Part shown: one piece after another, positions 3,195 to 14,492 of the stretch | How positions within the stretch are numbered: the stretch's first letter is position 1 | Layout: each line of letters starts with the position of its first letter | From: Okeania sp. SIO3I5 | GTDB taxonomy: Bacteria; Cyanobacteriota; Cyanobacteriia; Cyanobacteriales; Microcoleaceae | NCBI RefSeq assembly: GCF_010672085.1 | Contig: NZ_JAAHHT010000031.1 | Location: 1 to 64,000 of the forward strand | Direction: 5' to 3' | DNA length: 64,000 bases | Position numbers and translations under genes: made by a program | The notes under the pieces: model-generated | The model's database searches: none | Told to the model about the DNA's origin: nothing | The model's input: only the letters and a program-made list of their open reading frames with translations

Positions 3195-4106
3195 ATGTTA
3201 TGTCCTATTTGCGGTGCAGAATATGTTGAAACAGTGCCAGAGTATTGCTCTATTTGTGGCTGGAATTTAACGTCTGAAGCGGCTTTTTTTGCTACAGCAG
3301 AAATTTACCAACAAAAAGAACAAGCAAAATTAAACTGGGCGAGAAAAATGTGGCAAATTGTACAAGCTGCAGAAATTTCTAGTGATCAGAATAGCAATTC
3401 TGGTTTACCAACTGCACCTGCGGATGGGGTAAATGACAATCAAAATTATAGAGACTTAAAAAAGCAACTGGATGAAATACAAGCTCAGTTACATCAGGCA
3501 ACAATAGAACGCTTTCAACTTAACTCTCAACTACAATGGGTACTTTATCATCTGGAACAACTTAACCCGGAGACGTTGGCAGAAACTCTATATAATATTA
3601 ATGAAAAGTTGAATGCTATGCCAACTCCGGAACCACCAATGTCGGAAGTGGGAATAGATTATAATCCGCTGATTAATCTTTTGGCTGCTGGAAAATGGCG
3701 AAAAGCGGATGAACTTACCTGGGAGTTGTTGCTGCAAGTTACTCTCAGGGAGGAGGAAGGTTGGCTACAGTTGACAGATATTGAGAATTTTCCTTGCACA
3801 GACATTTGTACTATTGATTGGCTTTGGGAATATTATAGTCATGGGTTGTTTGGCTTGAATGTGCAACAACGTATATGGGAAAGTGCGAGTGGGGAATATG
3901 GAGAATTTTGCGATCGCTTGGGATGGCGAGATGGAGAAAATTGGAAATATTATGATGAATTGTCTTTTAATTTGGAAGCTCCGGAAGGTCACTTACCGAT
4001 AATTATCTGGCGCCGACGTGCTTGTTATGGGGTAGGACAAATGATGGCAGCGGAAACTTTTTTGGCTTTGAAAGCGCGACTAACAATTTGTGGTGGTAGT
4101 AGATAA
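3195..4106 (+). CDS. zinc-ribbon / coiled-coil / GUN4-domain protein
   Basis: A 303-aa protein. The N-terminus has a four-Cys zinc ribbon (CPICGAEY...CSICGW, residues 3-25). It is followed by a Gln/Glu-rich predicted coiled coil (about 85-120) and a C-terminal GUN4 domain (about 155-290). The GUN4 marks are INLLAAGKWRKADELTW, DIENFPCTDICTIDWLWEYYS, FGLNVQQRIWES, FCDRLGWR and LSFNLEAPEGHLP. Classic GUN4 binds porphyrins and helps Mg-chelatase, but cyanobacteria carry many GUN4 paralogues fused to signalling domains, and this is one of those. It precedes the caspase-like gene by 133 nt on the same strand, so it may belong to the same signalling neighbourhood (inference). The domain call is firm; the ligand is unknown. 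Confidence 0.85.
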   Translation: MLCPICGAEYVETVPEYCSICGWNLTSEAAFFATAEIYQQKEQAKLNWARKMWQIVQAAEISSDQNSNSGLPTAPADGVNDNQNYRDLKKQLDEIQAQLHQATIERFQLNSQLQWVLYHLEQLNPETLAETLYNINEKLNAMPTPEPPMSEVGIDYNPLINLLAAGKWRKADELTWELLLQVTLREEEGWLQLTDIENFPCTDICTIDWLWEYYSHGLFGLNVQQRIWESASGEYGEFCDRLGWRDGENWKYYDELSFNLEAPEGHLPIIIWRRRACYGVGQMMAAETFLALKARLTICGGSR

Positions 4107-4239: not shown

Positions 4240-5223
4240 ATGTCTGAAAAATTTTCTCATGGTTATGCTTTACTCATTGGTGTGGGAGAATCTGCATATC
4301 CACGTTTATCTTTACCTGTTACTGTTAAAGATACTCAAGCTATTTATGCTGCGCTGGTTGACCCTAAATTATGTGGTTATCCAGAAGGCAATATTCGAGT
4401 ATTAAATGACAAAGATGCAACACGGGACAATATTTTAGAGGGGTTAAAATGGTTAAAAGAGCAAGCAGAAGCAGATCCTAAAGCTACGATATTTATATAC
4501 TACTCTGGACATGGTGATTTGAATGTGGCAGATAACCAATACTATTTGTTGCCCCATGATATTGATCCACGAGATATTCCAAATTCAGCACTTGGGGCTG
4601 ACAGTTTTATTGAAGCTTTACGAAAAATTACGGCAGAAAAACTCCTAGTTGTTATTGATAGTTGTCACGCTGCAGGAATGGCTACTTCAAAAGATCCGGC
4701 AGATATTTTAAGTGCGGATAAAGCAATGTTAGAAAAGTTAAAGGGATTAAAAGCAGTTTCTCTAGAGCCAAGTTTGCTGAAAAAATTTATGGAAAGTAAA
4801 GGTCGTGTGGTATTAGCTTCTTCTCGTGGGGAACAGAAATCTTGGATACGCTCGGATAAAAAGTTAAGTATCTATACTCACCATTTTCTAGAGGCTTTGC
4901 ATGGAGCTAGTAATAAACCGGGTGATACAGAAGTTACAGTCTCTAATCTTATTCAACATTTGGGTAAAGCTGTTCCTAATAGTGCAATGGAACAGTATAA
5001 ACAAGAGCAAATTCCTATTGCTGATATGACCAATGCTGAAGATTTTGTAATTGCTAAACTTATGGGTGGAAAAGGTTTACCAAATAAAGGGTGGTCAGAG
5101 ATTCAACCTCAAGCAACTCAAAAAATTAACAAAATTGCTGATAATATTGAGCAACATGGCAAATTTATTATCAATATTGATAAAGCAAGAAATATGCACA
5201 TCGGTGATGTTATTCAAAAATAA
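4240..5223 (+). CDS. caspase-like (peptidase C14, metacaspase-type) protease with adaptor-like C-terminal tail
   Basis: A 327-aa protein with a caspase p20-like fold. It opens with YALLIGVGESAYP. The catalytic His is in FIYYSGHGD (His91) and the catalytic Cys in VVIDSCHAAG (Cys142). RVVLASSRGEQKSW and YTHHFLEAL follow, as in cyanobacterial type-I metacaspases and orthocaspases. The last 25 residues (HGKFIINIDKARNMHIGD) repeat a motif found near the N-termini of the next two genes, which suggests a shared adaptor domain. A MITE begins 15 bp after the stop, so the natural C-terminus may have been shortened. It would act in the cytoplasm, cleaving after basic residues if it resembles its family (inference). 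It is co-directional with the 5573 and 6605 genes. Confidence 0.88.
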   Translation: MSEKFSHGYALLIGVGESAYPRLSLPVTVKDTQAIYAALVDPKLCGYPEGNIRVLNDKDATRDNILEGLKWLKEQAEADPKATIFIYYSGHGDLNVADNQYYLLPHDIDPRDIPNSALGADSFIEALRKITAEKLLVVIDSCHAAGMATSKDPADILSADKAMLEKLKGLKAVSLEPSLLKKFMESKGRVVLASSRGEQKSWIRSDKKLSIYTHHFLEALHGASNKPGDTEVTVSNLIQHLGKAVPNSAMEQYKQEQIPIADMTNAEDFVIAKLMGGKGLPNKGWSEIQPQATQKINKIADNIEQHGKFIINIDKARNMHIGDVIQK

Positions 5224-5238
5224 TGGTGCTGCCTATTT

Positions 5239-5405
5239 ATATCATGTCCGCTGGTATCGTTTGTGTAAAACAAAGGGTGAATATCTACAGGAAATTTTAA
5301 GTTGTTTCGGGGTTAATACCCTTAATTCCAAGATAAATCAAGCCTTCATCCCAAATTTATGAATTCTTACCCTTTTACAATACCGATGCTACCGGACATG
5401 ATATT
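5239..5405. mobile_element. MITE family A, copy 2
   Basis: The ends are ATATCATGTCCGCTGGTATC and CCGGACATGATAT. The interior differs from copies 1 and 30387-30542 except near the ends (…GTATCGTTTGTGT on the left; GATGCTACCGG on the right). It sits directly behind the caspase-like gene and separates it from the following TM-protein gene. Confidence 0.75.
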
Positions 5406-5572
5406 ACGGGGTGAATTATGGGTTGGAGAAAAAGAAAATAAAAGAGTTGATTTACTAACTTTTGTATAGGAATTTACCTTTTTCCAAAAAAATTTATCCC
5501 TTCATTTAGCAACACCAAAATAGTTGTTATAATTTGTCACAAAAAACTAATTAATAACAAAAAATTGATCCA

Positions 5573-6388
5573 ATGATTACTACAGAGGAAATAAAGGCTA
5601 TTCTTGGTAGAATTGCTGAAGACAAAGAAACGCCATCGGATCTGAAGCAGCTAAAAAAGGCTATTTCTAGCAATGAGAAAATGGAGTTTCAGCTAGGAGA
5701 AACCATTGTTAATGTCGGTAAAGGGCAAGGAATTCATATCGGCAATCAAGTTATTCAGCAATTTGATTTAGATACTATTCGAGAGATTCTCAAAGAGAAG
5801 AAAGCCAGTCAAACAACTAGAATGGGTTTTATTCTTATTGTTATGGTTCTATTGTTGGGTATGATCTATATTGTTTACATGGATCAAATAAAGGAACATG
5901 ATCAACTTAACCCGCAACCATCTATCAATCAAACGCAGCCCAAAATCCCTAAGTATCCAAATGAATTTCCTGAGAATGCTACTTTATTAGTCACCAAACT
6001 TAATAATGCTCGACTACAAGGAGAAGAAGGCGATCGCCAAACTGGAAGCTTTTATTCCTATAACGTTTGGTTAGAAGATGTATCTCTAGAAAGTCCCCAT
6101 GACTCTACTGAAAATAATCGCCATGTTCAACAATATACTATCATTGGAAAATGGAGTTCAAAAGTTTACAAAGAAATTAATACTTTTGGTTTAAGAGTCG
6201 ATACACCTTGGGGAAGTAATAAAACACCGTATGGAAACTTTACAGTTAAATTTGAAATGATTAATGAACGAGTTACTAATATTCAACTTGATGTAGCTCG
6301 ACATGATGATAGTGCAAATAATTATGCAGCAGAGAAAGCTAAACAGTTAATTCAGTCAAAAATAAGTGAGGTATTGCAAGTTTTTTAA
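5573..6388 (+). CDS. single-pass membrane protein with adaptor-like N-terminal segment
   Basis: A 271-aa protein. Residues 1-80 are helical and charged and contain GETIVNVGKGQGIHIGN followed by FDLDTIREILKEK, matching the adaptor motif in the caspase tail and in the N-terminus of the STAND protein. A single strong TM helix (GFILIVMVLLLGMIYIVYM, about 83-102) precedes a Pro/Asn linker and a 135-residue C-terminal domain that I do not recognise. With the adaptor inside the cell, the C-terminal domain would be outside or periplasmic. There is no catalytic motif. It could be a membrane anchor or effector of the caspase/STAND set (inference from shared motif and gene order). Confidence 0.75.
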   Translation: MITTEEIKAILGRIAEDKETPSDLKQLKKAISSNEKMEFQLGETIVNVGKGQGIHIGNQVIQQFDLDTIREILKEKKASQTTRMGFILIVMVLLLGMIYIVYMDQIKEHDQLNPQPSINQTQPKIPKYPNEFPENATLLVTKLNNARLQGEEGDRQTGSFYSYNVWLEDVSLESPHDSTENNRHVQQYTIIGKWSSKVYKEINTFGLRVDTPWGSNKTPYGNFTVKFEMINERVTNIQLDVARHDDSANNYAAEKAKQLIQSKISEVLQVF

Positions 6389-6390
6389 CT

Positions 6391-6466
6391 AGGACTTACG
6401 CAGAAACCGGGTTTATCAATTTCGCCGTTTGAAAGACAATGTTCGGGGCAATAAACCCGGTTTCTT
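6391..6466. repeat. repeat family F (GGACTTACGCA ... AAACCCGGTTTCTT)
   Basis: It starts AGGACTTACGCAGAAACCGG and ends with a fold-back AAACCCGGTTTCTTA. Relatives lie at 13586-13867 (triplicated), 33760-33841 (inside a gene) and 35640-35835. The C-rich/G-rich stretch at about 6500-6530 belongs to a different mobile repeat (CCCCCTTTGAAAGGGGGG). Confidence 0.6.
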
Positions 6467-6604
6467 ATAGCAATTTGTTGAAGATCTGGAGGAGTTTAAT
6501 CCCCCCAAACCCCCCTTTGAAAGGGGGGCTTAAGAATTGCTTTGTGTAGGTCTTATTAACTCTAATGATTGATGTTCTGCTAATAAATAATAGTTAGATA
6601 AAAA

Positions 6605-9600
6605 ATGGCAATTTCTAATAATCCTAATGATATTATAAATCGCATTCAATCGGGTAATTGGAATAATTCTGACCTGGAATCTTTGCGTCAATTACTCCTA
6701 AATAATGATCAAGAAACTCTACAACAATTGGGGAAATTTAATGTTTCTATTGATGAAGGTAGAGAAATTCATATTGGCGATCGCTACTACCTCAACTGGA
6801 ACAATGAAGCTATTCAAGCTGTTGTGGAAGTTCTTCGACAGGGGAAAGCTGTTGCTGTTTTTAATCCCACTGGAAAAGTTACTATCTACAACTACTACAA
6901 TTATTATCGAGAGGAAACAACAACTGCCTCTGTTAATACCACAGAAGAAACTGATAATTTACCCTGTCCCTATCGAGGATTATTTAGTTTTGGTCCTGAA
7001 GATGCCGAATATTTCTTTGGGCGAGATGTATTTATTGAAGAACTTTATGAAGCTACTCAAACTAACAATTTTATTCCGGTTCTTGGTGCTTCTGGAAGTG
7101 GTAAGTCTTCTGTGATTTTTGCTGGATTAGTGCCGAGATTATTAACAGTAGGAAATTGGAAATTTACCCATTTTCGTCCGGGAACAGACCCTTTTCATGG
7201 TCTTGCTAAAGCATTAGTTCCGCTCTATGCGACAAATCTTGATGAAACTGACCGTATAGCTCAAGCTCGGAAATTAGCTGGTTATTTTCAAGATAATTCT
7301 GTTTTATTATCTGATGTTTTTGAGCAAATACAACATAATTATCCCCAAAGTCGGACTTTATTAATTGCTGACCAATTTGAGGAAATTTACTCTCTTTGTA
7401 GGGACGAACAAATCCGCCGGAATTTTCTGGATCTTCTCTTAAATACTTTTCAATCTTTACGGGAAAAATCTTCTTTATCTACTGTATTAGTTGCCACGAT
7501 GCGGGCGGATTTTTTAGGGAATGTTTTGGCTTATCCACCATTAGCTGAGGTATTACGAAATGATGTTAAAATTCGTTCTATGAATTGGCAGGAATTGAGA
7601 GAAATTATTGAAAAACCAGCCGAAAAATTGGGGGTAAATTTTGAAGCAGGATTAGTTGAACGTATTCTCAAAGATGTTGATAAACAACCGGGCAATTTAC
7701 CTTTATTAGAGTTTGCTTTAACTGAACTTTGGCAAAAACGTCTAGGTAAAATTTTAACCCATAATTCTTATGAGGAAATAGGAGAAGTTTCAGGGGCATT
7801 AACTCGTTATGCAGATGACAAGTTTGACAAACTTAATTCAGAAGAAAAAGAACGAGTCCGCCGAATTTTTATTCAGTTAGTGCAACCAGGGGAGGGAACA
7901 GAAGACACTCGCAGGGTTGCCACGAAGGCAGAATTAAATGAGAGCAACTGGGAGCTAGTCAGAAAATTAGCTGATGCACGGTTGGTTGTCACCAGTCGTG
8001 CTGTTATTGTCGGTGCCACGGAAAATAATTCTGAACAAGAAACGGTTGAGGTAGTCCATGAAGCTTTGGTTAAAAATTGGGGGCGGTTGAGAGAATGGAT
8101 GGAAGTAGATCGAGAATTTAGGTCTTGGCAAGAACAATTGCGATCGGCGATGAGACAATGGGAAGCAAATGGTCGGGATCAGGATTTGTTGTGGCGCGGT
8201 GCAGCTCTGGCAAAAGCAGAAGAGGAGTTGCAGGAGCGATCGGAGGATTTGGGAGTTGAGAAATTATTTATTTTGGAGAGTGTTGGAGAGCGCGATCAAC
8301 TTCAACAAGTGGAGGCGGAACGAAAGCGGCGAGATTTGGAAACTGCACAGCAATTAGCAAAAGCACAGGCAAAAGCTCTGGAAGAATCGAAAGCCAGGGA
8401 AGTACAACAAAAGCAAGCCAATAAAAAGCTGCTTGTAAGAGCAATATTTCTTGGTGTTGCATCTGTCATCGCGATTATTGCTGCTGGATTGGCGTGGAAT
8501 CAGACAAAATTAGCCTGGAATCAGAGAAAATTAGCCCGGAATCAGAGAAAATTAGCCCGGAACCAGAAAAAAGAAGCACAACTGAATCTAGCAAATTCTC
8601 GCGCCCGAAATTCTATGTCTCTGTTGAGTCAAGGAAAAGATTTAGATGCTTTTTTGGAGGCTATTCGAGCAGGAAAAATCTTGCAAAAATACCAAGCAAA
8701 AGACCCACAGGTTTTAGGTGCCCTAATAGGCAATATTTATGAAGGCAGGGAGCGGGAGCGTTTGCAGGGACACGATAGCAAGGTCAAAAGCGTCAGTATC
8801 AGCAACGATGGCAAAACTATTGTTTCTGGCAGTTATGACAACACCATCAAAGTCTGGAATCTGGAAACGGGAGAGAAAATCCGCACTCTCACAGGACACG
8901 ATGACGGGGTCAATAGCGTCAGTATCACTAAGGATGGTCAAACAATAGTTTCTGGCAGTGATGACAAAACTATCAAAGTCTGGAATCTGGAAACGGGAGA
9001 GGAAATCCGCACTCTCACAGGACACGATGCCTGGGTCAAGAGCGCCAGTATCACTAATGATGGCACAACCATTGTTTCTGGCAGTTATGACAACACCATC
9101 AAAGTCTGGAATCTGGAAACGGGAGAGAAAATCCGCACTCTCACAGGACACGATGACGGGGTCAATAGCGTCAGTATCACTAAGGATGGTCAAACAATAG
9201 TTTCTGGCAGTGATGACAAAACTATCAAAGTCTGGAATCTGGAAACGGGAGAGGAAATCCGCACTCTCACAGGACACGATGGCTGGGTCACAAGCGCCAG
9301 TATCACTAATGATGGCACAACCATTGTTTCTGGTAGTTATGACCAAACCATCAAAATCTGGAATCTGGAAACGGGAGAGGAAATCCGCACTCTCACAGGA
9401 CACGATAGCTGGGTCAAGAGCGTCAGTATCAGTAATGATGGCAAAACCATTGTTTCTGGCAGTGATGACAGAAAGACCGATAATGACAGTGGGGGCCCTT
9501 TATTTGGTAAGATCATAAATTCAGACCAAACCATCAAAGTCTGGAATCTGAAAACGGGAGAGGAAATCCGCACTCTCACAGGACACGATAACAGGGTCAA

Positions 9601-10660
9601 TAGTGTCAGTATCAGTAACGATAGCAAAACCATTGTTTCTGGCAGCGATGACAAGACCATCAAAGTCTGGAATCTGGAAATGGGAGCAGAAATCCGCACT
9701 CTCACAGGACACGATGGCAGTGTCACAAGCGTCAGTATCAGTAAGGATGGCAAAACCATTGTTTCTGGCAGCGATGACAAGACCATCAAAGTCTGGAATC
9801 TGAAAACGGGAGAGGAAATCGGCACTCTCACAGGACACGATGGCAGTGTCACAAGCGTCAGTATTAGTAACGATAGCAAAACCATTGTTTCTGGCAGTTT
9901 AGACAGAACTATCAAAGTCTGGAATCTGGAAATGGGAGCAGAAATCCGCACTCTCAAAGGACACGGTGGCAGTGTCACAAGCGTCAGTATCAGTAACGAT
10001 AGCAAAACCATTGTTTCTGGCAGTAGTGACACCACCATCAAGGTCTGGAATCTCAAGGCGGGAACTGAGTTGTACACTCTCACGGGACATGATGAATTGG
10101 TCTGGGACGTCAGTATCAGCAATGATAGCAAAACCATTGTTTCTGGCAGTTTAGACAGAACTATCAAAGTCTGGAATCTGGAAACGGGAGAGAAAATCCG
10201 TACTCTCAAAGGACACGATGGCTGGGTCACAAGCGTCAGTATCAGTAAGGATGGCAAAACCATTGTTTCTGGCAGTTTAGACAGAACTATCAAAGTCTGG
10301 AATCTGGAAACGGGAGAGGAAATCCACACTCTCAAAGGACACGATAGCTTGGTCACAAGGGTCAGTATCAGTAACGATAGCAAAACCATTGTTTCTCGCA
10401 GTTTAGAAGGTGCAATCAAAGTCTGGAATCTCGAAGCGGGAGCCGAGAACCACACTCTCACAGGATACGATGGCTGGGTCACAAGCGTCAGTATCAGTAA
10501 CGATAGCAAAACCATTGTTTCTGGCAGTTATGACAAAACCGTCAAAGTCTGGAATATAGACTTTGACTGGTTAATGGAACGTAGCTGCGACTGGGTGAGA
10601 AATTATTTGCAGCACAATCCCAACGTTACTGAAGAAGAGCGTCGTCTGTGTGATCTATAG
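6605..10660 (+). CDS. nSTAND1 NTPase with adaptor-like N-terminus, TM segment and 14 WD40 repeats
   Basis: A 1351-aa protein. Residues 1-75 carry the adaptor-like motif GKFNVSIDEGREIHIGD plus a short helix. After a Tyr-rich linker comes the nSTAND1 module: CPYRGLFSFGPEDAEYFFGRD, Walker A GASGSGKSS (about 162-170), Walker B TLLIADQFEEIY (about 253-264), and a winged-helix region ending near VEVVHEALVKNWGRL. A long coiled coil and one hydrophobic helix (about 609-631) lead to an Asn-Gln-Arg-Lys heptad stutter, then 14 WD40 blades (about 716-1318), enough for two seven-bladed propellers. STAND proteins are NTP-driven switches: the WD40 part would sense a ligand and the N-terminal adaptor would recruit effectors such as the upstream caspase (inference). 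The blades are nearly identical in DNA, and blade 6 has a 19-residue insertion. Confidence 0.92.
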   Translation: MAISNNPNDIINRIQSGNWNNSDLESLRQLLLNNDQETLQQLGKFNVSIDEGREIHIGDRYYLNWNNEAIQAVVEVLRQGKAVAVFNPTGKVTIYNYYNYYREETTTASVNTTEETDNLPCPYRGLFSFGPEDAEYFFGRDVFIEELYEATQTNNFIPVLGASGSGKSSVIFAGLVPRLLTVGNWKFTHFRPGTDPFHGLAKALVPLYATNLDETDRIAQARKLAGYFQDNSVLLSDVFEQIQHNYPQSRTLLIADQFEEIYSLCRDEQIRRNFLDLLLNTFQSLREKSSLSTVLVATMRADFLGNVLAYPPLAEVLRNDVKIRSMNWQELREIIEKPAEKLGVNFEAGLVERILKDVDKQPGNLPLLEFALTELWQKRLGKILTHNSYEEIGEVSGALTRYADDKFDKLNSEEKERVRRIFIQLVQPGEGTEDTRRVATKAELNESNWELVRKLADARLVVTSRAVIVGATENNSEQETVEVVHEALVKNWGRLREWMEVDREFRSWQEQLRSAMRQWEANGRDQDLLWRGAALAKAEEELQERSEDLGVEKLFILESVGERDQLQQVEAERKRRDLETAQQLAKAQAKALEESKAREVQQKQANKKLLVRAIFLGVASVIAIIAAGLAWNQTKLAWNQRKLARNQRKLARNQKKEAQLNLANSRARNSMSLLSQGKDLDAFLEAIRAGKILQKYQAKDPQVLGALIGNIYEGRERERLQGHDSKVKSVSISNDGKTIVSGSYDNTIKVWNLETGEKIRTLTGHDDGVNSVSITKDGQTIVSGSDDKTIKVWNLETGEEIRTLTGHDAWVKSASITNDGTTIVSGSYDNTIKVWNLETGEKIRTLTGHDDGVNSVSITKDGQTIVSGSDDKTIKVWNLETGEEIRTLTGHDGWVTSASITNDGTTIVSGSYDQTIKIWNLETGEEIRTLTGHDSWVKSVSISNDGKTIVSGSDDRKTDNDSGGPLFGKIINSDQTIKVWNLKTGEEIRTLTGHDNRVNSVSISNDSKTIVSGSDDKTIKVWNLEMGAEIRTLTGHDGSVTSVSISKDGKTIVSGSDDKTIKVWNLKTGEEIGTLTGHDGSVTSVSISNDSKTIVSGSLDRTIKVWNLEMGAEIRTLKGHGGSVTSVSISNDSKTIVSGSSDTTIKVWNLKAGTELYTLTGHDELVWDVSISNDSKTIVSGSLDRTIKVWNLETGEKIRTLKGHDGWVTSVSISKDGKTIVSGSLDRTIKVWNLETGEEIHTLKGHDSLVTRVSISNDSKTIVSRSLEGAIKVWNLEAGAENHTLTGYDGWVTSVSISNDSKTIVSGSYDKTVKVWNIDFDWLMERSCDWVRNYLQHNPNVTEEERRLCDL
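8752..10550 (+). repeat. 126-bp coding repeat, 14 WD40 blades
   Basis: Each blade is 42 codons with the core IVSGSxDxTIKVWNLxTGExIRTL. Blades 1-2 and 3-4 are an almost exact 252-bp duplication: the DNA from about 8829 recurs at 9081. This indicates recent amplification or gene conversion. The only spacing break is in blade 6 (about 9471-9527), where an extra stretch (RKTDNDSGGPLFGKIINSD) interrupts the D-x-x-x-K-V-W strand. Confidence 0.9.
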
Positions 10661-14060: not shown

Positions 14061-14492
14061 CTAACCTACACGAGCAAAACGAGCTTGCCAGTACATCCCG
14101 AAAGTAGTCGGCACTAACCAACTCACAGGCAAATGTCCAACTGGGGCATTAATATCAAAAATTATATTGTCATAGTTTAACCAGCGATCGCCTATACGCC
14201 ATCCGACTATTTCTGCTAGTTGAGCGTAGTTTCTTTGGACTTTTTGATAAATATTATTTATCATGCTAAATCCAAAACGTTTTTGACTATATTTAAGCCA
14301 AAGTCTATCAATTATAATTAAATCATTACAGGGAAATTTCTCAATATCTTTCTGAGTTAATAGCAGGTTATCTCTTTGCTCTGCACCTGCTATTTTTAAC
14401 ATAATTCGTCTAGTTTCCCGATCCGCTTCTTGCCAATTTTTTACTACTAATAAATTTTGCAGTTGACTGAATTTGTTGGTCATGTTCAACAA
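14061..14492 (-). CDS. stand-alone GUN4-domain protein
   Basis: A 143-aa protein made almost only of a GUN4 domain: LQNLLVVKNWQEADRETRRI, DIEKFPCNDLIIIDRLWLKYS, FGFSMINNIYQKV, LAEIVGWRIGDRW and IIFDINAPVGHLPVSW. It resembles the C-terminal half of the 3195 protein (the F-P-C-x-D and D-x-x-W positions are the same). It lacks the extra N-terminal helical domain of the chlorophyll-pathway GUN4, so it is probably a paralogue for porphyrin-linked sensing (inference). The start could be MLNMTNKFS or the internal MTNKFS. The second is favoured because MTNKFS is the part copied in the upstream repeat array. Confidence 0.82.
   Translation of the reverse strand: MLNMTNKFSQLQNLLVVKNWQEADRETRRIMLKIAGAEQRDNLLLTQKDIEKFPCNDLIIIDRLWLKYSQKRFGFSMINNIYQKVQRNYAQLAEIVGWRIGDRWLNYDNIIFDINAPVGHLPVSWLVPTTFGMYWQARFARVG

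What the first reader, a model, noticed from the sequence alone, without database searches (positions are those of the whole stretch)
4240..10660. Caspase, one-TM protein and STAND-WD40 NTPase share an adaptor-like HIGD motif
Seen: GKFIINIDKARNMHIGD at the caspase C-terminus, GETIVNVGKGQGIHIGN in the TM protein and GKFNVSIDEGREIHIGD in the STAND protein share spacing and key residues, and the genes are consecutive and co-directional. Known: effector-associated domains join STAND or other NTPases to caspase/TIR-type effectors in bacterial conflict systems (Kaur, Aravind and co-workers). Inference: homotypic contact would bring the caspase and the membrane protein to the WD40-sensing NTPase as an abortive-infection or death pathway. 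The membrane protein with an unknown external domain is the least described part.
Basis: partly seen in the sequence, partly recalled or inferred. Interest (0 to 1): 0.8.

Follow-up and report, generated by a model that had tools for sequence, protein, structure and literature searches.

The report
Caspase with minimal EAD10 docking tail
Three neighbouring genes in a filamentous cyanobacterium encode a caspase-like protease, a membrane protein and a sensor NTPase that share a known adaptor domain, and the protease carries only its central 25 residues as a tail, which suggests how a bacterial cell-death complex may be wired together.

Summary
The shared segment is the core of a published adaptor, effector-associated domain 10 (EAD10, PF19954). 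The STAND-WD40 and TM proteins carry whole EAD10s (86.5 and 69.6 bits, cut-off 24.1); the caspase carries only positions 37-61, at its C-terminus. Three of the four proteins with an EAD10 match in the genome are these.

(2) Tails resemble the adjacent gene's EAD10 (0 of 20000 permutations; p=0.013 by rank without the three strongest and one near-duplicate). (3) In one locus the core is replaced by another motif in caspase and neighbours alike; in another genome both partners show the core alone. (4) The TM protein's outer domain belongs to a small unnamed family, fused to EAD10 without a TM in all five relatives tested.

Best reading: an EAD10 death/defence complex, a new variant of a known kind; the TM protein's part is the least supported. 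Bolder, unproven: the core is a templated beta (amyloid-like) signalling motif. I found no experiment on any part.

The parts
4240..5223 (+). caspase-like protease (Peptidase_C14), 327 aa, His-containing SGHG (aa 89-92) and Cys-containing DSCHA (aa 140-144) present
   Evidence: (E 7.4e-19)
5140..5214 (+). bare EAD10 core at the caspase C-terminus (aa 301-325 of 327; EAD10 positions 37-61)
5573..6388 (+). EAD10 - transmembrane helix - domain X protein, 271 aa
5573..5797 (+). full EAD10 of the TM protein
   Evidence: (2.4e-19)
5822..5878 (+). predicted transmembrane segment of the TM protein (aa 84-102, mean Kyte-Doolittle 2.68); no such segment in the five relatives tested
5987..6385 (+). domain X, about 133 aa, no Pfam or NCBIfam match; strong relatives in 8 genomes of 376 (own included); model with helix, strands, helix, weakly like TULIP/BPI and Aha1-N folds
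6605..10660 (+). EAD10 - nSTAND1 NTPase - TM-like segment - WD40 protein, 1351 aa
6605..6829 (+). full EAD10 of the STAND protein
   Evidence: 7.8e-24; 86.5 bits
6968..8185 (+). nSTAND1 NTPase (aa 122-527), Walker A GASGSGKS at aa 161, Walker B-like LLIADQ at aa 252
   Evidence: (2.7e-119)
8429..8485 (+). predicted transmembrane segment of the STAND protein (aa 609-627, mean Kyte-Doolittle 2.53)
8768..10588 (+). 14 WD40 repeats, 13 of 42 residues (the last set to 42 by the script) and one of 61; most variable at repeat positions 4, 5, 7, 23, 25

Best explanation
The locus encodes an EAD10-wired conflict (death or defence) complex. The WD40 array of the membrane-anchored STAND NTPase senses a trigger; NTP-driven oligomerisation clusters its N-terminal EAD10s. 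These recruit the caspase through its bare EAD10 core tail (beta strands KFIINI and MHIGD, inferred to add onto the beta sheet of the clustered EAD10 cores) and hold the EAD10-TM-X protein beside it at the membrane. The caspase is switched on by proximity and cleaves targets, X being either a substrate, a second effector or a membrane-side partner. Shown: families, intact active-site motifs, the bare-core tail, its recurrence and co-variation with neighbours, conserved gene order in a second genome. Inferred: contact, oligomerisation, activation, death, trigger.
For: EAD10 by profile in two proteins and its core in the third. Only one other protein of the genome has an EAD10 match at E 0.1. 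Same gene order caspase - EAD10-X - EAD10-STAND in G057, whose contig equals Okeania sp. SIO2F4 contig L111 in length and match place. Bare core at the end of caspases in many genomes: 21 of 24 tails at 10 bits or more, 0 of 1200 shuffled tails. Tail against core of the nearest co-directional EAD10 within 500 bases: n=17 pairs, mean z 1.51 against -0.28 (sd 0.29), 0 of 20000 permutations; by rank, n=13 without the three strongest and one near-duplicate, p=0.0126. Profile-free scan: 19 of 22 caspases of EAD10 stretches match the N-terminus of another protein of the stretch better than all 60 shuffles; 1 of 8 other caspases does, through a different helical segment. The window's tail ranks the STAND EAD10 first of 97.
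Against: No experiment. The caspase alone does not reach the whole-domain cut-off. The window's TM EAD10, the nearest one, is not close to the caspase tail (rank 57 of 97; rank 8 of 17, z 0.03). Other pairs without co-variation: o1078/o1066 rank 16 of 17, o1149/o1155 15, o831/o843 11, o45/o52 7 (the second triplet), o1410/o1418 7. In one search the matching partner is not always the adjacent gene (L062, L072, L079, L090: kilobases off, some on the other strand), so that scan shows kinship with some EAD10 of the stretch, not specificity. Relatedness of genomes is not fully removed by the permutations. Gaps of 349 and 216 bases, with a terminator-like stem at 6443 (such stems: 9 found, 5.3 expected), leave co-transcription open. 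G375 has a tailed caspase and no other EAD10 match at E 0.01.
Confidence: 0.6

Rival explanations
1. Templated beta assembly: the EAD10 core is a signalling-amyloid type motif, like BASS/RHIM. NTPase clustering nucleates a cross-beta stack of cores that the bare caspase tail joins; the helices of full EAD10 are a carrier that keeps the core soluble.
For: The bare core of about 25 residues sits at the extreme C-terminus of effectors and pairs with N-termini of NTPase proteins, the layout described for BASS pairs (PMC7889193, passages read). It also sits on CHAT proteins (L071, L080) and on two proteins with hydrophobic stretches by eye (L031, L097). In G196 a caspase and a 1705-residue ORF with a P-loop by eye both show the core without a full EAD10, and no further EAD10 match at E 0.01 is in that genome. 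In G034 the core is swapped for an N/G-rich motif in two EAD10 proteins with P-loops and in the caspase between them. Core I-x-I-G, with G58 invariant in 39 rows and present in 97 of 99. The Frankia BASS3 peptide scores 5.5 bits against the EAD10 profile, 10 of 2000 shuffles as good.
Against: AlphaFold2 gives a compact alpha+beta EAD10 with block pLDDT 82-89 over residues 41-70. Pfam RHIM marks no EAD10 place among its 24 matches in 8 genomes. The second published peptide (Methanothrix) does not match: 517 of 2000 shuffles as good. The BASS3 match lies at positions 40-49, not at I-x-I-G. In G196 the two genes are on opposite strands, about 1.9 kb apart, and Pfam's match in the large ORF is positions 24-70. 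BASS profiles were not at hand.
Confidence: 0.28
2. The EAD10s only co-locate or regulate: the tail docks the caspase as an inhibitor-held reserve or substrate, and the system serves a housekeeping or stress role, not death.
For: GUN4 gene directly upstream; of 473 cyanobacterial caspase homologues 83 have WD40 and 29 GUN4 domains (PMC8283722, passages).
Against: EADs are described from predicted conflict systems (PMC7159879, PMC8195603); the WD40 part diverges faster than the rest (210/598 identical against 302/409 NTPase and 98/120 EAD10 with linker), as expected of a sensor in conflict. Neither excludes a stress role.
Confidence: 0.15
3. Chance likeness, or a decayed EAD10 at the caspase end.
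For: The caspase match alone is under Pfam's cut-off.
Against: 0 of 1200 shuffled tails against 21 of 24 real; relatives end at the same place; co-variation with neighbours.
Confidence: 0.01

Closest known systems
EAD10 adaptor systems (Kaur et al. 2020, 2021; PF19954)
   Same: Same domain, terminal position, repeated in adjacent genes, on effector and on NTPase; homotypic coupling proposed for the class
   Different: The caspase has the core alone as a C-terminal tail; the passages of the two papers that I read do not describe a bare-core form, a swapped core, or domain X (their supplements and figures were not seen)
BASS / RHIM / PP signalling-amyloid pairs (Dyrka et al. 2020, known to me only through passages of PMC7889193 and PMC8086366)
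   Same: Short matching motifs, effector C-terminus and NTPase N-terminus, neighbouring genes, filamentous bacteria; reported also with CHAT domains
   Different: EAD10 partners have a predicted folded alpha+beta domain; no RHIM profile match; effector is a caspase, not a Bell protein; amyloid not shown
Bacterial CARD-NLR systems (LypABC, PMC13236601, passages read; Lysobacter gasdermin system as cited there)
   Same: Adaptor domain joins protease and NLR-like ATPase; cell lysis
   Different: There the adaptor is a helical CARD and the protease trypsin-like; here EAD10 and a caspase

Membership tests
EAD10 (PF19954) | profile match over the curated cut-off of 24.1 bits, STAND protein | tested here: met
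   86.5 bits
EAD10 (PF19954) | same, TM protein | tested here: met
   69.6 bits
EAD10 (PF19954) | same, caspase | tested here: not met
   16.0 bits whole protein, 20.3 bits tail alone; covers positions 37-61 only, so I call it an EAD10-core tail, not an EAD10
EAD systems (Kaur et al.) | copies in adjacent genes, N- or C-terminal, on effector and on core NTPase | tested here: met
EAD systems (Kaur et al.) | adjacent copies closer to each other than to others | tested here: inconclusive
   met for caspase tail and STAND (rank 1 of 97), not for caspase tail and TM protein (rank 57 of 97); 24% TM-STAND identity
BASS/RHIM signalling amyloid | short motif at effector C-terminus paired with NTPase N-terminus of a neighbouring gene | tested here: met
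BASS/RHIM signalling amyloid | match to RHIM profile PF12721 | tested here: not met
   0 of 24 matches in 8 genomes at an EAD10 place, none over cut-off
BASS/RHIM signalling amyloid | match to BASS1-10 profiles | not testable with these tools
   profiles not held; one published peptide weakly similar, one not
BASS/RHIM signalling amyloid | forms cross-beta fibrils | not testable with these tools
   needs a laboratory
CARD-NLR | helical death-fold adaptor | tested here: inconclusive
   model has three strands in the core; no PDB chain matched well
Caspase (PF00656) | profile over cut-off and His/Cys motifs | tested here: met
   68.8 bits against 21.4; SGHG, DSCHA

The most novel reading that the evidence does not exclude
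The EAD10 core is a portable signalling motif that folds only on assembly: a templated beta stack of the amyloid-signalling type that full EAD10 merely carries. That would join two literatures, the effector-associated domains and the BASS/RHIM amyloids, and give a bacterial caspase a prion-like recruitment tail whose type can be swapped together with that of its NTPase.
Probability: 0.28. Interest if true: 0.8.

Novelty: new variant of a known kind. Interest (0 to 1): 0.52.

Why it matters
EAD coupling is a prediction for which I met no direct test of EAD10 in the papers that I saw. A 25-residue tail that co-varies with its partner and has natural swapped and core-only versions reduces the question to peptides: does the tail bind the EAD10 next door, is the pairing specific, and is the contact a discrete dimer or a templated assembly. 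It would also tell how prokaryotic caspases are recruited to NLR-like sensors.

Tried and rejected
Rejected: decayed gene at the caspase end (reading on past the stop in three frames shows no remainder of EAD10 by eye; relatives end likewise). Rejected: 'membrane protein with external domain' as a family property. Not a member by profile: RHIM proper. Looked for tail pairing in caspases without the EAD10 tail: of 13 stretches given (L146-L158) 8 had a usable tail and 1 of these 8 matches a neighbour, L151, by a different helical segment; a second caspase of the own genome (L001) has an odd tail scoring 8.3 bits but no partner. PDB sequence search with EAD10: best E 0.091, not convincing; the BASS3 peptide found no PDB chain. 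EAD10 fold: Foldseek best E 2.8, VIA-align best Z 2.3, which shows nothing about novelty of the fold. Domain X: best rows LBP Z 8.0 (4.3 A, 133 aligned), Aha1 Z 7.7 (4.0 A, 116 aligned); the tool warns that such Z may be only a common arrangement. NCBIfam gave the caspase only a sub-threshold 'caspase, EACC1-associated type' (93.1 of 140 bits). PADLOC: for the four genes scanned, 'caspase' for the caspase, PD-T4-6 for the upstream GUN4 gene, nothing for the TM and STAND proteins. Literature: searches; only PMC8195603 held both 'EAD10' and 'amyloid', the latter in a reference title. Dyrka et al. 2020, the BASS paper itself, was not read; a BASS family may already contain this motif.

Limits of the controls. 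Loci were fetched because of EAD10 matches, some of them for a core match only (G375, G331:C59, G196, G339, G073, G051, G102:C68), so 21 of 24 is not a rate among caspases at large. In 8 genomes one search lists 95 caspase matches; of the 38 caspase loci I had from the own genome (8 of 10) and these (30 of 95, the tool's choice, mostly best scorers), 35 gave a caspase ORF and 2 of the 35 carry the core at 10 bits or more, both at EAD10 loci. L091 was given but left out (tail over 160 aa); the tailed caspases of L075 and L096 were not given. One search's match list is cut by the tool. The caspase profile was seeded with eight translations of which three (L002, L003, L008) were on the wrong strand; it was then rebuilt twice from its own strong hits, and Pfam confirms the caspase domain in the five that I scanned with it (window; L028, L030, L084; L091). 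The first EAD10 profile included some core-only hits; the one used for the 21 of 24 was rebuilt from full EAD10s alone. TM segments rest on hydropathy, those of L031 and L097 on inspection.
Full report
1. What is there. The window is part of a 10.5 Mb genome. Pfam names the caspase (PF00656, E 7.4e-19), EAD10 in the TM protein (PF19954, E 2.4e-19) and nSTAND1 plus WD40 in the third; EAD10 of the third protein is outside the 25 of 64 families shown there and comes out when its first 121 residues are scanned alone (E 1.3e-24). The caspase matches EAD10 positions 37-61 only. In the whole genome EAD10 gives five matches at E 0.1: these three and two in one further protein on contig C290, although the genome has ten caspase matches. 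The genome shares its genus label with G057, whose contig C838 has the same length and match place as Okeania sp. SIO2F4 contig NZ_JAAHGT010000391.1, so the window is probably from Okeania or a close genus (inference).

2. The adaptor is known. Kaur et al. 2020 and 2021 (PMC7159879, PMC8195603; passages read) define EADs as small terminal domains that are repeated in neighbouring genes and are predicted to couple effectors to core NTPases by homotypic contact; they predict EAD10 to be alpha+beta.

3. The caspase tail is a bare core, and this is a recurrent form. EAD10 occurs in 10 of 61 genomes of the family and 57 of 388 sampled from the order, at E 0.01. I fetched loci around many, not all, of these and listed ORFs. 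Besides 103 matches starting before profile position 16 there are 38 partial matches, mostly to the core (loci overlap, so a few genes are seen twice). Of the 38 rows, 21 end within 14 residues of the end of a caspase ORF, as in this window. With a profile built only from 99 full EAD10s, 21 of 24 unique complete caspase tails from these loci score 10 bits or more; 1200 shuffled tails give none (best 9.0). The same core ends or enters other proteins: CHAT proteins (L071, L080), a CHAT-core-VMAP protein (L087), proteins with hydrophobic stretches (L031, L097).

4. Tail and neighbour go together. Each caspase tail was scored against the second half of all 99 EAD10s. For 17 caspases with a co-directional EAD10 gene within 500 bases the true pairs have mean z 1.51, permuted pairs -0.28 (sd 0.29), none of 20000 permutations as high. 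Without the three strongest cases and one near-duplicate 13 pairs remain; by rank p=0.0126 (mean normalised rank 0.67 against 0.50). The strongest: G022 (NINLGNIGQARDITLG in the caspase, NINLGNIGQARDINIG next door), G102 (GKNIVGNIEGENNQVGD, GKNLVGKIEGNQIHVGD, GKNIVGEIQGKQIQVGD in three genes in a row) and G034. Against: pairs at rank 11, 15 and 16 of 17, and three at rank 7 or 8, among them both triplets when the nearest EAD10, that of the X protein, is taken as partner. A profile-free scan of the fetched stretches gives 19 of 22 caspases of EAD10 loci a match that no shuffle of 60 reaches, each at the N-terminus of the other protein, and 1 of 8 for other caspases; the other protein is not always the adjacent gene, so this scan shows kinship, not specificity. 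In this window the tail ranks the STAND EAD10 first of 97 and the TM protein's 57th. Relatedness of genomes is not fully removed by these permutations.

5. Two informative exceptions. In G034 two EAD10 proteins keep the helices but have another core (GNNNVIGNNNVIGDNN; NSQIVPGNNNVTGDGN), and the caspase between them carries the like motif (NSTILPGDRNVVGSGN) in mid-tail instead of the usual end; Pfam still gives EAD10 for both (27.3 bits; 27.2 bits). In G196 the caspase and a 1705-residue ORF (P-loop by eye, not scanned, with masked stretches), on opposite strands about 1.9 kb apart, show the core without a full EAD10 (Pfam positions 32-65 and 24-70), and no further EAD10 match is in that genome at E 0.01. 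So the core can act, or at least persist, without the full domain, and can be exchanged as a unit.

6. Structure. AlphaFold2 for the STAND EAD10 (12 sequences) gives pLDDT 80, pTM 0.67: helices 7-16, 21-32, 36-43, strands 47-49, 55-57, 60-62, helix 67-85. This favours a folded domain whose sheet the bare tail could extend, and speaks against a core that is wholly disordered before assembly; it does not settle the matter. The searches found no close solved structure.

7. The amyloid reading. Layout fits BASS pairs (PMC7889193, PMC8086366, passages and one section read). Tests: Pfam RHIM marks no EAD10 place among 24 weak matches in 8 genomes; the Frankia BASS3 peptide is as similar to the EAD10 profile as only 10 of 2000 of its shuffles, but at positions 40-49, not at I-x-I-G, and the Methanothrix peptide is not (517 of 2000). 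I rate this reading 0.28.

8. The TM protein. Its domain X has matches in 10 of 376 genomes at E 0.01, of which 8 (own included) are strong and two weak with internal stops. One scan of named genomes gives five loci: Okeania, Moorena, Symploca and Prochloron, seen before without names, and Mastigocoleus testarum. In these five X is fused to EAD10 with no TM-like segment; G236 also has EAD10-X. In G077 X follows a helical segment that resembles EAD9 below cut-off (E 0.025), in G229 a stretch without a match. X is 107/129 identical between window and Okeania SIO2F4, their EAD10s only 18/65: one of the two copies, by its likeness to none of the others more likely the window's, has exchanged its N-terminus, and the window's has gained a TM. 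In SIO2F4 the first 411 bases of the X gene are 366/411 identical to the start of the STAND gene, a duplication or conversion. A caspase with the tail is next to EAD10-X in the window, SIO2F4, Moorena and Symploca; the STAND gene follows in the window and SIO2F4, in Symploca another EAD10 protein whose further domains I did not identify, and no EAD10-STAND in the Moorena, Mastigocoleus and Prochloron stretches held. Fold likeness to TULIP/BPI or Aha1-N is borderline.

9. The sensor. Of fourteen WD40 repeats 13 have 42 residues (the last by construction of the script); they are very alike and vary most at positions 4, 5, 7, 23 and 25 (entropy 1.7 to 2.4 bits; position 39 has 1.7 too). Compared with SIO2F4 the EAD10 plus linker is 98/120 identical, the NTPase 302/409, the WD40 region 210/598. 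This is what a fast-changing recognition surface would show; similar variable positions in fungal WD40 NLRs are recalled, not tested.

10. Verdict. Ordinary in its family, new in its wiring: a variant of EAD10 systems in which the protease has only the strand core of the adaptor.

Noticed in passing
window 3195-4106 (+) and 14061-14492 (-): Two GUN4 genes near the locus, the first with an N-terminal cysteine-rich segment (sub-threshold zinc-ribbon matches) and a strong match to the PADLOC model PD-T4-6 that includes the GUN4 part.
   Followed up: no
window 9398-9580 (WD40 repeat at protein residues 932-992): One WD40 repeat of the STAND protein is 61 instead of 42 residues long, an insertion of 19 residues.
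   Followed up: no
L030 10213-11019 (-), G034: A 268-aa protein with hydrophobic stretches, EAD10-like helices (17.6 bits, under cut-off) and a core like the swapped one of the nearby caspase and NTPase proteins.
   Followed up: partly
L091 430-2100 (+), G164: Caspase with a 303-aa tail holding several copies of a [VQ]-x-[FI]-G-D-R-x-[YF] motif, like a stack of EAD10 half-cores.
   Followed up: no
L151 5944-7017 (+), G302: Caspase without the EAD10 tail that matches a nearby gene through a shared helical C-/N-terminal segment, perhaps another EAD.
   Followed up: no
L148 3-1391 (+), G331; L147 6419-8791 (-), G057; L146 4194-8669 (+), own genome: Caspases of the same chassis with other short Gly/Asn-rich C-terminal tails and no matching neighbour found.
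   Followed up: partly
L032 6590-7960 (+), own genome C290: The only other EAD10 protein of the genome has one and a partial second EAD10 in tandem.
   Followed up: no
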